A stretch of 64,000 nt of DNA, taken from Caldilinea sp. CFX5 (GTDB lineage Bacteria; Chloroflexota; Anaerolineae; Caldilineales; Caldilineaceae). Location of the stretch: contig QWII01000042.1 in assembly GCA_021405325.1 (NCBI GenBank), positions 62,001 through 126,000 on the forward strand. The letters are read 5' to 3'. The notes under the pieces were generated by a model. That model did not search any database. It was given only the letters and a program-made list of their open reading frames with translations, and had not been told where the DNA came from. Below, piece after piece: positions 31,375-64,000 of this stretch. Positions within the stretch are counted from its first letter, which is position 1. The number at the start of each line of letters is the position of its first letter. The position numbers were made by a program, and so were the translations under genes.

Positions 31375-32721
31375 CTAGCGTTCAGGCGCGATTTCATCGA
31401 GTGCAAGGCCGCTTGTTTCCGGTAAGCGCGCCACGACAAAGGGGGTGATCAGAATAAAGGCGGACATAAAGCTGACGGCGACCCATTGGGAACCGACAAA
31501 GCCAAAGAAGATCCCATGCACCGCCTGACTCAACGCCGCCCCTGCCGCTGCCACCAATGCCCGCGCTCCCGCCGCTGTAGAGCGGTACGACGTTGGGTAG
31601 AGTTCGGTGCTGAGGGTGTCTACCGAGACGTTGATGCCCATCATGCCAAAGAGCATAATGACCCAAAGAACGGGCAAAAGCCAACCGCTGCCGTTATAAA
31701 AGAGGCTGATGAAGATCGGCATACAACCCAAAAAGAGCATTGCCGCCCGTTTGCGCCCCAGCAAGTCGCCCACATTGCCGGCCAGCGTATTGCCAAAGAG
31801 CGCCAGAAAACCGCCGGCCATGGTCAAGATGCTAATATGCCAGGGCTGCCAGCCATGCGCCTCCTGCAAATAGGTCGGGTCATAGAAGAAGGCAACTTCG
31901 GCGGCAAAGGTGTAGATAAAGACGATGGCCGTAATTGCCCAAAAGCGGGCTGGATATGCACGCACCAGATCAATGACCGGTTGCAGGTTTGCCATAAACG
32001 GCTCTTCGACCCCTTCGCGCTTGTGCGCTCGCAGGGCCTGTTGTTTCTGAAAGTGGGCGGTCTCTGGCAGGTTACGGCGCAGGCTGGCAAGAATTACCAG
32101 CGGTAAAAAGCCGATCACATAGAGCGAGCGCCAGCCAAAGGGCATGACATCAATAAAGGCGAAAAAGAGCGCCGCCAACCCAAAGCCGGTCGCCGCCATC
32201 GCTGCCAGCGCGCCGATACCCCGGCCGCGCGCATCCGGCGGAAACTCTTCCGCGATCACCACCGCCGAGAGTAACATCTCCGCTGTGACAAACATGCGTG
32301 AGAAAAATTGCAGCGTTACAAACATCGGCACCGAAGTTGATAAAGCGGTGGCTCCCGTTAAGACGGTATAGCCCAGAATCGTAAAGAGCAACAGTCGCCG
32401 TCGCCCGATGCGATCGGCCGCCAACATCAACAAGAAGGCGGGCAATGAGCCAAGTTGGATAATCGCAATCGTATTGCTCAACTGCGCGTCAGTAATGCCC
32501 AAATTGCTCTGAATTTGCGGCAGCGCCATTTGCAGAATGGCAAGATCATAACGGTTGAAGAGGGAGGCAAAGCCAACCAATCCCAGTAGCCGCCACTGGT
32601 AGCGCGTGAGCCGGGGCAATTTCAAAGCAAACAGAAAGGGCAAAAACCAGACCCAAAGCGGCCATTTCTGTTGCAGTTCGGCGTCGGCTGACGACGGCCC
32701 CGTGAGCGTTTGCGTTTCCAT
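31375..32721 (-). CDS. MFS transporter
   Basis: A 448-residue protein of 12 membrane segments of the major facilitator superfamily. The first cytoplasmic loop has ADRIGRRRLLLF (the GRR signature), and the second half has GNVGDLLGRKRAAML. Overall it resembles the metabolite/sugar:H+ symporter group rather than drug efflux pumps. It begins METQTLTGPSSADAEL after an AAGGAAA site. It is the last gene of the biosynthetic block in the direction of transcription, so it may export the product or import a precursor. A 140-bp AT-rich gap separates it from the epimerase, enough for its own promoter. Confidence 0.85.
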   Translation of the reverse strand: METQTLTGPSSADAELQQKWPLWVWFLPFLFALKLPRLTRYQWRLLGLVGFASLFNRYDLAILQMALPQIQSNLGITDAQLSNTIAIIQLGSLPAFLLMLAADRIGRRRLLLFTILGYTVLTGATALSTSVPMFVTLQFFSRMFVTAEMLLSAVVIAEEFPPDARGRGIGALAAMAATGFGLAALFFAFIDVMPFGWRSLYVIGFLPLVILASLRRNLPETAHFQKQQALRAHKREGVEEPFMANLQPVIDLVRAYPARFWAITAIVFIYTFAAEVAFFYDPTYLQEAHGWQPWHISILTMAGGFLALFGNTLAGNVGDLLGRKRAAMLFLGCMPIFISLFYNGSGWLLPVLWVIMLFGMMGINVSVDTLSTELYPTSYRSTAAGARALVAAAGAALSQAVHGIFFGFVGSQWVAVSFMSAFILITPFVVARLPETSGLALDEIAPER

Positions 32722-32789
32722 TTTAGTTTCCTTTGGTGGGTTGGTGGGTTTGGTGGATTCGTTGGTTTTCCAGAAAATCGGTTGCTAGA

Positions 32790-32860
32790 TCATAAAGCGA
32801 CAGACTAAATTTCGCAAATCGTAAGATTAAAATGTAATAAATTAATCTAATATAATGTTT
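32790..32860 (-). promoter_or_regulatory. AT-rich candidate promoter region of the MFS gene
   Basis: This stretch is strikingly AT-rich against its surroundings, with several TTAGATTAATTTATTAC-like stretches on the minus strand. I cannot pick one -35/-10 pair with confidence. It lies directly between the epimerase stop and the MFS leader. Confidence 0.3.
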
Positions 32861-32861
32861 A

Positions 32862-33941
32862 CTAACCAGCCATCACCCCATCTTGCCAGCGCTCCTGATT
32901 CGCCGCATAGATCGCTTGTAAGATGGCTGGTACGTCATAGGTCACTTGCCAGGACGGGTAGTGCCTCTGGAACTTGCGCAGATCGCTGATCCACCAAATA
33001 TGATCGCCCACGCGGTTCTCTTCGGAATAGCGCCAACTCAAAGGGCGACCGGCAATCTCTTGACAAACATCAATGGCTTCCAACATGGAGCAGTTGCTGG
33101 TGCGACCTCCGCCCATGTTGTAGACCTCGGCAATGCGTGGGGCGCGATAAAATTCATAGAAGGCGCGAATCAGATCGGCGCTGTGAATATTGTCGCGCAC
33201 CTGTTTGCCCTTGTAGCCGTAGATCGTGTAGGGTGTGCCGGTGGCTGTACATTTCATCAAGTAGGCCAGAAAACCATGCAACTGGGCGCCGGCATGGTGT
33301 GGCCCGGTGAGACAGCCGCAACGGAAACAGGCCGTGGGCAACTCAAAGTAGTGACCATACTCCTGCACCAACACATCCGCTGCCACCTTTGAAGCGCCAA
33401 AGAGGCTGTGCATTGTCTGGTCGAGCGACATATTTTCGCTGATACCTGTGGCGTAGGGGTGATTCGGGTCAATCTCCCAACGGTTGGCTTCTTCGATCAA
33501 TGGCAGCCGGTTTGGTGTATCCCCATAGACCTTGTTGGTCGAAGTAAAGATGAAGACGCTCTGCGGTGCATAGTGCCGCGCTGCTTCCAGCAAGTTGAGC
33601 GTACCGGTGGCGTTGACGGCAAAGTCCGTATGCGGTTCACGCACCGCCCAATCATGGGACGGTTGCGCCGCCGTATGAATGATGAGCGCGATCTGCCGCC
33701 CATAGCGTTGGAAGATCCGGTTGATCGCCCCCTGGTCGCGGATATCTACCGTCTGGTGTTCATAGCGCGCCACTGTCTCTTCCAGGCGCCGCCGATTCCA
33801 GTGGGTCGAGGCGCTTTCGCCAAAGAAATAGCGGCGCATATCGTTGTCGATGCCGACCACATCCATGCCCAAGCCGGCAAAAAAGCTGACCGCCTCTGAG
33901 CCAATCAAGCCGGCCGAACCAGTGACAATTGCTACACTCAT
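32862..33941 (-). CDS. NDP-sugar epimerase, CDP-paratose 2-epimerase-like (extended SDR)
   Basis: A 359-residue extended SDR protein. The NAD-binding loop is TGSAGLIGSEAV at about residue 7. The region IHTAAQPSHDWAVREPHTDFAVNATGTLNLLEAARHY, with FTSTNKVYGD, is typical of CDP-paratose/tyvelose 2-epimerases. The expected catalytic Y-x-x-x-K reads F-G-A-S-K (HSLFGASKVAADVLVQEYG), so the tyrosine is a phenylalanine. The late VYNMGGGRTSNCSMLEA is also family-like. It should act on a nucleotide sugar in the cytoplasm. It lies among three glycosyltransferases and a nucleotidyltransferase, so it probably prepares a sugar donor. An AAAGGA site precedes the ATG. Confidence 0.82.
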   Translation of the reverse strand: MSVAIVTGSAGLIGSEAVSFFAGLGMDVVGIDNDMRRYFFGESASTHWNRRRLEETVARYEHQTVDIRDQGAINRIFQRYGRQIALIIHTAAQPSHDWAVREPHTDFAVNATGTLNLLEAARHYAPQSVFIFTSTNKVYGDTPNRLPLIEEANRWEIDPNHPYATGISENMSLDQTMHSLFGASKVAADVLVQEYGHYFELPTACFRCGCLTGPHHAGAQLHGFLAYLMKCTATGTPYTIYGYKGKQVRDNIHSADLIRAFYEFYRAPRIAEVYNMGGGRTSNCSMLEAIDVCQEIAGRPLSWRYSEENRVGDHIWWISDLRKFQRHYPSWQVTYDVPAILQAIYAANQERWQDGVMAG

Positions 33942-63295: not shown

Positions 63296-63310
63296 GAACA
63301 CTCCAAAAGA

Positions 63311-63365
63311 AAGTTAGTTGGTTGGTTGCGCTGTAAGACACTGACCAACGAACCAACCAACAATC
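63311..63365. repeat. Family A half-element
   Basis: GTTAGTTGGTTGGTTGCGCTG and TCAGT...AACGAACCAACC arms, imperfect pairing. It lies between the ABC gene stop (63368) and the mini HlyD-like start. Confidence 0.6.
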
Positions 63366-63367
63366 CA

Positions 63368-64000
63368 CTACGGATGCGCAATCACCAATAGAGTCGGCGC
63401 GCGACGGAGGACGCACTCTAGCGCCACTTGCATATTTTCGGGGTCAAGGGAGGCGAAGCTTTCGTCCAGGATCACCAGATCGGCGCGTTGTAAAAGTGCG
63501 CGGGCAATATAGACGCGGCTGCGTTCGCCGTGGGAGAGCCGCCAGCCTTGCTCACCCACCGCCTGGTGAATTCCCAACGGCATCCGGTCGAGGAGCGGGC
63601 CAAGCCCTAACTCGCGACAAATTTCTTCCGCTTCCACCAGATCTTCCGGCCAGGCCGGCCAGCGTCGCCCCATCAGCAGGTTAAAGGCAAAACTGGCATT
63701 CAAGATATGATTTTCATGAAATTGGGGCGCCGCCACCACCCGCTGCCGCCACACCTGTTCGTTGAGGGTGGGGCGATCCAGACCGCGCAGTAGCAGCAGC
63801 CCCGATTCCGGCTTGTGCAACCCGATCAACAACGAAGCCAAGGTTGACTTGCCACCCCCTGAAGATCCTTCCAACAGCAGCCGGTCGCCTCGATAAATCG
63901 ACAGGTTGCAACCGTTGAGGATCAAGCGCCCGCCCGTACGGTAGCGAAATTGTAACCCACGCCCTTCAATTAGCGGGACACTTTGCGGTAAGCGCAGCGC
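63368..64000 (-). CDS. ABC transporter ATPase domain, 5'-truncated by the window edge
   Basis: The visible 210 codons run from the window edge (PLIEGRGLQFRYRTGGRLILNG) and contain a full nucleotide-binding domain: GSSGGGKSTLAS (Walker A), LSHGERSRVYIARALL (a variant signature, LSHGE instead of LSGGQ), LVILDESFASLD (Walker B) and the final VIAHP, where the H-loop histidine comes just before the stop. The domain therefore ends unusually early, without the C-terminal helix. Membrane segments probably lie upstream outside the window. It would form a second exporter with the mini HlyD-like protein. The true start is not in view. Confidence 0.85.
   Translation of the reverse strand, partial: ALRLPQSVPLIEGRGLQFRYRTGGRLILNGCNLSIYRGDRLLLEGSSGGGKSTLASLLIGLHKPESGLLLLRGLDRPTLNEQVWRQRVVAAPQFHENHILNASFAFNLLMGRRWPAWPEDLVEAEEICRELGLGPLLDRMPLGIHQAVGEQGWRLSHGERSRVYIARALLQRADLVILDESFASLDPENMQVALECVLRRAPTLLVIAHP

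What the first reader, a model, noticed from the sequence alone, without database searches (positions are those of the whole stretch)
31375..64000. Candidate biosynthetic gene cluster for a halogenated, glycosylated polyene tetramic acid (aurantoside-like)
Seen: one KS-AT-DH-KR-ACP module (B-type KR, no ER), followed by KS-AT(malonyl)-ACP-C-A-PCP-TE with no reduction, two halogenase-family genes, three MGT glycosyltransferases, one FkbM methyltransferase, a nucleotidyltransferase, two epimerases and several exporters. Established: one iterative PKS module plus a PKS-NRPS with a beta-keto intermediate and a TE gives acyl tetramic acids (polycyclic tetramate macrolactam logic). Aurantosides are chlorinated polyene tetramic acid N-trisaccharides from Theonella-type sponges, Asn-derived, with one methylated pentose in some. 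Inference: three glycosyltransferases, two halogenases, one methyltransferase and an Asn-like A domain fit unusually well. From memory only, a filamentous sponge Chloroflexota has been reported as an aurantoside producer.
Basis: partly seen in the sequence, partly recalled or inferred. Interest (0 to 1): 0.95.

Follow-up and report, generated by a model that had tools for sequence, protein, structure and literature searches.

The report
Aurantoside-type chlorinated polyene tetramate cluster
This stretch of a bacterial genome, likely of the phylum Chloroflexota, holds twelve genes in a row, matched gene for gene in a freshwater-lake bacterium and, for the three genes that could be checked, in a sponge bacterium that is probably the reported aurantoside producer; they likely make a chlorinated, sugar-bearing antifungal pigment of the aurantoside kind, which would mean that this chemistry is not confined to sponges.

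Summary
Twelve minus-strand genes at 31375-57488 encode an MFS transporter, two SDRs, three MGT glycosyltransferases, a nucleotidyltransferase, an FkbM methyltransferase, a PKS-NRPS (KS-AT-ACP-C-A-PCP-TE), a one-module PKS (KS-AT-DH-KR-ACP) and two flavin halogenases. The A-domain code reads DATKVGEVGK, printed as Asn elsewhere. 'Chloroflexi bacterium TSY', by its name the Theonella swinhoei Yellow filament reported as aurantoside producer, has both halogenases (60%, 62%) and the methyltransferase (77%), apparently on one contig. So the aurantoside-like reading is well supported, though the product is unproven and the ats paper could not be opened. A halogenase tree puts the window's pair beside the lake branch rather than the sponge branch, for both halogenases. 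The cluster therefore looks like an old, vertically kept trait of a Chloroflexota lineage. Corrections: the ATPase and ABC genes beyond 57488 are neighbours of uncertain role, and the two 'epimerases' are nearest to CDP-tyvelose 2-epimerase but lack its catalytic tyrosine.

The parts
31375..32721 (-). MFS transporter, likely product export
   Evidence: PF07690, PF00083; 80% identical Lac Pavin counterpart beside the sugar genes
32862..33941 (-). SDR1, extended SDR nearest in PDB to CDP-tyvelose 2-epimerase, catalytic Tyr replaced by Phe; predicted sugar-nucleotide enzyme
   Evidence: 84% Lac Pavin counterpart
33954..35273 (-). GT1, MGT-type glycosyltransferase
   Evidence: TIGR01426 372.5 bits; 83% Lac Pavin counterpart
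35340..36098 (-). NTP, sugar-1-phosphate nucleotidylyltransferase-like protein
   Evidence: PF00483, weak similarity to glucose-1-phosphate thymidylyltransferases; 81% Lac Pavin counterpart
36170..37201 (-). SDR2, extended SDR nearest in PDB to CDP-tyvelose 2-epimerase, catalytic Tyr replaced by Leu
   Evidence: 88% Lac Pavin counterpart
37198..37986 (-). FkbM-family methyltransferase, predicted sugar O-methyltransferase
   Evidence: PF05050/TIGR01444; 77% in Chloroflexi bacterium TSY; 82% Lac Pavin counterpart
38012..39238 (-). GT2, MGT-type glycosyltransferase
   Evidence: TIGR01426 350.3 bits; 85% Lac Pavin counterpart
39253..40539 (-). GT3, MGT-type glycosyltransferase
   Evidence: TIGR01426 336.4 bits; 72% Lac Pavin counterpart
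40564..48153 (-). PKS-NRPS, KS-AT-ACP-C-A-PCP-TE, A-domain code DATKVGEVGK (Asn predicted)
48242..53803 (-). one-module PKS, KS-AT-DH-KR-ACP, predicted to act iteratively to build the polyene
53876..55744 (-). HalA, flavin-dependent halogenase (open frame runs to 55912)
55830..57488 (-). HalB, flavin-dependent halogenase
57626..59716 (-). neighbour, heavy-metal-type P-type ATPase, membership uncertain
   Evidence: TIGR01525 above cut-off; best Lac Pavin match only 47% and on another contig
59795..64000 (-). neighbours: ABC exporter, 153-aa protein, second ABC ATPase (cut by the window's end); membership uncertain
   Evidence: same order in Lac Pavin contig C29 at 72%, 58% and 90%

Best explanation
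The twelve genes at 31375-57488 form one gene cluster that likely makes an aurantoside-type compound, a chlorinated polyene tetramic acid predicted to carry an N-linked chain of three pentoses. Inferred route: the one-module PKS (48242-53803) works iteratively, each round ending in a double bond because KR and DH act and no ER is present; the KS-AT-ACP of the PKS-NRPS adds one malonyl unit that stays a beta-ketone; the C-A-PCP joins it to asparagine; the TE releases it by Dieckmann-type closure to the tetramic acid; HalA and HalB chlorinate the polyene; GT1-GT3 add three pentoses whose nucleotide forms are shaped by NTP, SDR1 and SDR2; the FkbM enzyme methylates one sugar hydroxyl; the MFS protein exports the product. 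Shown here: domain order, motifs, A-domain code, gene-for-gene conservation in a lake genome, and kinship of three genes with the sponge TSY record. Not shown: any reaction, the order of steps, or the product.
For: Domain architecture; active-site motifs and A-domain code, with the same code printed as Asn in PMC3547906. All twelve genes in Lac Pavin MAG G001 at 62-88% identity, in the same order within each of three contigs, the cluster being cut at two places by contig ends. Third codon positions differ 3.0-9.2 times as often as second positions in 13 cluster rows (a fourteenth, spoiled there by my frame slip, gives 3.5 when redone; four flanking genes give 2.7-4.3), as expected of kept proteins. 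TSY: HalA 60%, HalB 62%, FkbM 77%, all three with longest contig 197055. HalA and HalB trees agree in their main branches. Aurantoside structures: one or two chlorines, one to three pentoses reported as D, one O-methyl in some, Asp-derived tetramate.
Against: No metabolite is linked to this sequence. The ats paper is not held, so only 3 of 12 genes are matched to TSY, that TSY is the producer rests on its name, and 'same contig' rests on an equal contig length. A third TSY halogenase (P0097, other contig length) is nearly as close to HalB (60%), though it branches outside the HalB rows. The A-domain code was read by recalled motif positions, and the Asn label in PMC3547906 is itself a prediction. 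Both SDRs lack the catalytic Tyr, so their chemistry is unknown; neither is nearest to UDP-xylose synthase (SDR2 matches it at 2.6e-15 against 1.4e-45 for CDP-tyvelose 2-epimerase), so xylose supply is assumed to come from elsewhere in the genome.
Confidence: 0.82

Rival explanations
1. It makes a related but different member of the same class, for example a rubroside-like product with an oxygenated end ring, another chain length, or fewer or other sugars. This is partly a sub-case of the best explanation, so its odds overlap with that one's and do not add up.
For: The window's halogenases are only 60% and 62% identical to those of TSY and sit on another branch; PKS chain length cannot be read from sequence; aurantosides themselves vary from C18 to C28 and from one to three sugars.
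Against: The gene set is conserved in Lac Pavin, and six of the seven sugar genes are among the best kept (81-88%; GT3 only 72%), which speaks for the same sugar chain in those two genomes.
Confidence: 0.4
2. It is a polycyclic tetramate macrolactam pathway of the HSAF/ikarugamycin kind.
For: Both use an iterative PKS and an NRPS module (PMC11724479, start of abstract).
Against: The A-domain code is Asn-like, not ornithine-like (ornithine recalled); the PKS is a separate protein and a second KS-AT-ACP makes the last extension; no cyclisation oxidoreductase is among the twelve genes, but halogenases and three glycosyltransferases are.
Confidence: 0.03
3. It is a chlorinated polyene without a tetramate, the TE hydrolysing a linear acid and the sugars attached otherwise.
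For: In 14 of 73 halogenase loci (L001 aside) two or more halogenase frames stand with a one-module-type PKS match, and in 12 of these 14 no frame within the 10-kb flanks has the PKS-NRPS as its best window match; Herpetosiphon L004 has a free thioesterase there. So the halogenase-PKS pair also works without a tetramate module. [quoted passage not shown]
Against: Here an intact C-A-PCP-TE with an Asn-like A domain follows a non-reducing KS-AT-ACP, and it is conserved in Lac Pavin.
Confidence: 0.07

Closest known systems
ats cluster of 'Candidatus Poriflexus aureus' (Theonella swinhoei Yellow), aurantoside producer
   Same: Chloroflexota; orthologues of HalA (60%), HalB (62%) and FkbM (77%) in the record 'Chloroflexi bacterium TSY'; an abstract ties ats to aurantosides
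   Different: The window's halogenases lie on a different branch, nearer to the lake MAG; habitat of the window unknown; the ats sequence and the other nine genes were not available for comparison
Lac Pavin Chloroflexi MAG, record title LacPavin_0920_WC57_MAG_53_11 (G001)
   Same: All twelve genes plus flanking Band7, pentapeptide and sulfotransferase genes in like order, and the ABC genes
   Different: 62-88% identity; cluster split over three contigs; its HalB frame lacks a stretch of 50 residues; P-ATPase only 47% and elsewhere; no product known
Polycyclic tetramate macrolactam clusters
   Same: Iterative PKS plus NRPS giving a tetramate (PMC11724479, start of abstract in a search listing; the rest recalled)
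   Different: Asn-like instead of Orn-type A domain, two PKS proteins, halogenases and glycosyltransferases, no cyclases
Halogenase plus one-module-PKS clusters of Herpetosiphon, Ktedonobacteraceae and actinomycetes
   Same: Two or more halogenase frames of this family next to a PKS at 41-45% identity over 1793-1904 residues; KS-AT-DH-KR-ACP domains checked for L004
   Different: No match to the window's glycosyltransferases or PKS-NRPS in the L004 stretch; P450, aminotransferase and DUF1702 genes instead

Membership tests
aurantoside (ats-type) cluster | separate one-module KS-AT-DH-KR-ACP PKS plus KS-AT-ACP-C-A-PCP-TE PKS-NRPS | tested here: inconclusive
   Present here, but that ats has this layout could not be checked
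aurantoside (ats-type) cluster | A domain selecting Asn | tested here: inconclusive
   Code DATKVGEVGK read by motif, printed as Asn in PMC3547906 by prediction; activity not tested
aurantoside (ats-type) cluster | orthologues of the halogenases of the reported producer | tested here: met
   P0016 and P0053 of Chloroflexi bacterium TSY fall with the window's HalA and HalB; labelled HalA rows (10) and HalB rows (8) each one group, 100/100; 60% and 62% identity. TSY = producer is inferred from the name
aurantoside (ats-type) cluster | methyltransferase orthologue of the reported producer | tested here: met
   P0250, 77% identity, TSY, longest contig 197055 as for P0016 and P0053
aurantoside (ats-type) cluster | three glycosyltransferases for a trisaccharide | tested here: met
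   three MGT genes above the TIGR01426 cut-off; their orthologues in TSY not tested
aurantoside (ats-type) cluster | product is a chlorinated polyene tetramate glycoside | not testable with these tools
   needs metabolite data
polycyclic tetramate macrolactam cluster | ornithine-type A domain and oxidoreductase cyclases (features recalled) | tested here: not met
   Asn-like code; no such genes among the twelve
aryl polyene (xanthomonadin-type) cluster | type II, stand-alone KS/ACP/KR enzymes | tested here: not met
   multidomain type I proteins; xanthomonadin-like clusters use stand-alone enzymes (PMC3691225, passages)

The most novel reading that the evidence does not exclude
Aurantoside-type biosynthesis is an ancient, vertically inherited trait of a Chloroflexota lineage that also lives free in fresh water, and the sponge compounds are the product of only one of at least three branches; the window is a member of a further, undescribed branch sister to the lake one. 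Its two SDRs, which have lost the catalytic tyrosine in both genomes, would be a new kind of enzyme making the rare D-arabino and 5-deoxy-arabino sugars.
Probability: 0.5. Interest if true: 0.78.

Novelty: new member of a known kind. Interest (0 to 1): 0.62.

Why it matters
Aurantosides are antifungal and cytotoxic pigments known from sponges (lithistids, Melophlus and Manihinea in the papers seen), and those passages name one uncultured producer. A full gene set here and another from lake water give sequences for expression, show which genes are kept best (most of the sugar genes), and move the question from 'which sponge symbiont makes it' to 'what is it for outside a sponge'. The SDR pair also makes the origin of the unusual D-arabino and 5-deoxy sugars directly testable.

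Tried and rejected
Polycyclic tetramate macrolactam, modular polyene macrolide and xanthomonadin-type readings were rejected on A-domain code, one-module layout and type I architecture.

The PKS-NRPS protein search was swamped by long NRPSs: of 120 listed rows the window's own protein (P0220, 2529 aa) is the only one shorter than 3223 aa, so PKS-NRPS orthology to TSY could not be tested that way. A scan of viral contigs with the TSY methyltransferase found no relative. Searches for further clusters: methyltransferase in 1 of 46 genomes of G001's order and 1 of 400 drawn from its phylum, SDR2 at E<=1e-80 in 1 of 298 drawn from its class, HalA at E<=1e-120 in 2 of 396 drawn from its class (one of these, G347, only at 45%) and in 1 of 46 of its family; apart from G347 every hit was G001. 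TSY itself was not found among these genomes. Rfam gave no match in the window. No structure was predicted. The scan of genome contigs kept 73 loci from the best 80 of 194 relatives.

In one search one of 18 rows (KS-AT-ACP-C) was out of frame by my slip and is discarded; it was redone.

A check of this report against its calls changed: HalB identity to TSY now computed (62%); the sugar genes are no longer called best kept without exception; the layout row of the membership test went from met to inconclusive.
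Full report
What is there. On the minus strand, 31375-57488 holds twelve genes with gaps of -4 to 140 bases. Pfam and NCBIfam assign them as MFS transporter, SDR1, glycosyltransferase GT1, nucleotidyltransferase, SDR2, FkbM methyltransferase, GT2, GT3, PKS-NRPS, PKS, HalA and HalB. 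The PKS is KS-AT-DH-KR-ACP without ER; the PKS-NRPS is KS-AT-ACP-C-A-PCP-TE without reductive domains. The KS cysteines and histidines, the DH His and Asp, the LDD-type KR, the serines of the three carrier domains, the HH of the C domain (HHTICDA, where DG is usual) and the TE GHSLG are present. The open frame given for HalA from 55912 most likely starts at 55744: the predicted protein of the window's own contig is 622 aa, its six nearest relatives 610-622.

A domain. Reading the ten specificity positions by their motifs gives D-A-T-K-V-G-E-V-G-K, and the Lac Pavin A domain has the same residues at the nine variable positions. The positions come from recalled motif rules, not from a structure alignment, and the last K was taken as the usual one. 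The only paper found with that code, PMC3547906 (passages read), lists it twice as Asn by prediction. Aurantosides are described as derived from L-aspartic acid found after hydrolysis, with a tetramate part C7H6N2O3 and an amide carbonyl (PMC11050911 and PMC3280539, passages), which fits Asn.

Halogenases. Both match flavin-dependent halogenases (best PDB matches PltA, a flavoprotein 3nix and CmlS). In an alignment of 25 of the 26 proteins P0001-P0026 (the partial P0014 was left out) the lysine of KAG/KSG, the GGGLAGG stretch (one G nearly invariant) and WVWLIP are conserved; the lysine aligns with a lysine of PltA that I recall as the catalytic one. Beyond this cluster the family sits near PKSs of the one-module kind: 14 of the 73 loci from genome contigs (L001, which is Lac Pavin, left aside) have at least two halogenase frames and a PKS matching over 1793-1904 residues at 41-45%. 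So the halogenase-PKS pair looks like a reusable unit. In aurantosides chlorine sits at C-17 (aurantoside K) or C-17 and C-21 (aurantoside L).

Link to the known producer. The abstract in PMC7024214 (passage read) says that an ats cluster from a filamentous Chloroflexi of Theonella swinhoei Yellow was linked to aurantosides by reconstitution of one transformation; PMC12858407 and PMC10227082 agree (passages). The full paper was not available. Proteins of 'Chloroflexi bacterium TSY' (a Chloroflexota taxon) include P0016 (60% to HalA), P0053 (62% to HalB) and P0250 (77% to FkbM), each with longest contig 197055. That TSY is this producer is inferred from its name, and that the three share a contig from the equal length. 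A further TSY halogenase, P0097, on a contig of 149837, is 60% identical to HalB but branches outside the HalB rows.

A freshwater counterpart. The Lac Pavin MAG (record title LacPavin_0920_WC57_MAG_53_11; sample names of that style appear in PMC9875498 on this stratified lake, passages read) holds all twelve genes on three contigs: HalB-HalA-PKS start; PKS end-PKS-NRPS start; PKS-NRPS end-GT3-GT2-FkbM-SDR2-NTP-GT1-SDR1-MFS. Identities are MFS 80, SDR1 84, GT1 83, NTP 81, SDR2 88, FkbM 82, GT2 85, GT3 72, PKS-NRPS 69-70, PKS 68 and 77, HalA 62, HalB 67%. The order across contig ends is inferred. Beyond the MFS gene 5 of 6 window genes also match in order (Band7 79, u262 45, pentapeptide-PBP 57, pentapeptide 66, sulfotransferase 67%; the 186-aa frame does not). 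On the other side the ABC genes match at 72, 58 and 90% on a contig that ends just after them, but the P-ATPase has only a 47% match elsewhere. The window's GlnRS is 70% identical to that of G001 (whose frame there has two TAG stops) and 71% to that of G171 of the same family, about the level of the cluster itself. This favours vertical descent of the whole region over recent transfer, though one reference gene is thin support.

Tree. A maximum-likelihood tree was made of 65 halogenases: 64 of the 120 proteins listed and Lac Pavin HalB. The labelled HalA rows (10) and HalB rows (8) each form one group (100/100), and both show the same three branches: TSY with several unnamed contigs; the window with its near relatives; Lac Pavin with others. 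Contigs known only by length (106934, 51497, 16269, 20059, 13897) fall in the same branch for both halogenases. The window and lake branches join in both (98/91 for HalA; 93/94 for HalB, just under the tree program's bar of 95/80). The window's cluster is therefore probably nearer to the lake one than to the sponge one. One oddity: two HalA-type rows with contig length 29119 lie in different branches, so either two contigs share that length or one carries two such genes. Most rows have no habitat label.

Sugars. Three glycosyltransferases and one methyltransferase fit a trisaccharide of xylose, arabinopyranose and 5-deoxy-2-O-methyl-arabinofuranose. Both SDRs match CDP-tyvelose 2-epimerase best among solved structures, while the best NCBIfam model, dTDP-glucose 4,6-dehydratase, stays far below its cut-off for both. 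The first match is tempting because two of the sugars are arabino-configured (2-epimers of ribose), but both SDRs have lost the YxxxK tyrosine (Phe in SDR1, Leu in SDR2) in window and lake alike. I therefore mark their role as open.

Not in print? Searches for aurantoside with freshwater and Chloroflexota and for tetramic acid, halogenase, Chloroflexota and glycosyltransferase together found 0 papers. Earlier searches listed 10 of 10, 20 of 45, 20 of 60 and 8 of 97 papers, none of whose titles or abstract starts reports such a cluster outside sponges. This covers the held open-licence library only, and most of those papers were not opened.

Noticed in passing
57626-64000 and 24396-31255: The cluster sits between a P-ATPase/ABC block and a Band7/pentapeptide block; Lac Pavin contig C784 (L122, 14000 of 21966 bases read) has a paralogous block of the same families (ABC, 153-aa protein, P-ATPase, u262, Band7) with no match to the PKS genes in the stretch read, so the PKS genes may have been inserted into such a module.
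   Followed up: partly
L120 (Lac Pavin C287) 3583-19998: A second PKS region with a 2610-aa frame, a P-ATPase (46% to the window's) and a halogenase (43% to HalB): a P-ATPase stands beside halogenase and PKS genes here too.
   Followed up: no
L004 (Herpetosiphon giganteus) 1745-21482: Three halogenases, thioesterase, one-module PKS, two DUF1702 proteins, P450 and aminotransferase: a probably halogenated polyene cluster of unknown product, with like halogenase-PKS layouts in Ktedonobacteraceae and Streptomyces loci.
   Followed up: partly
L088 5456-7027: The Lac Pavin HalB frame lacks 50 residues present in the window's HalB and in the near relative P0038, an in-frame gap that may be real or an assembly fault.
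   Followed up: partly
13408-15945: GlnRS with a C-terminal GatB/YqeY domain, about 70% identical to its nearest relatives in the class; many of the listed matches stop near residue 625, before that domain.
   Followed up: no
25637-28588: Two pentapeptide-repeat proteins, one with a PBP-like domain, conserved next to the cluster in Lac Pavin.
   Followed up: no
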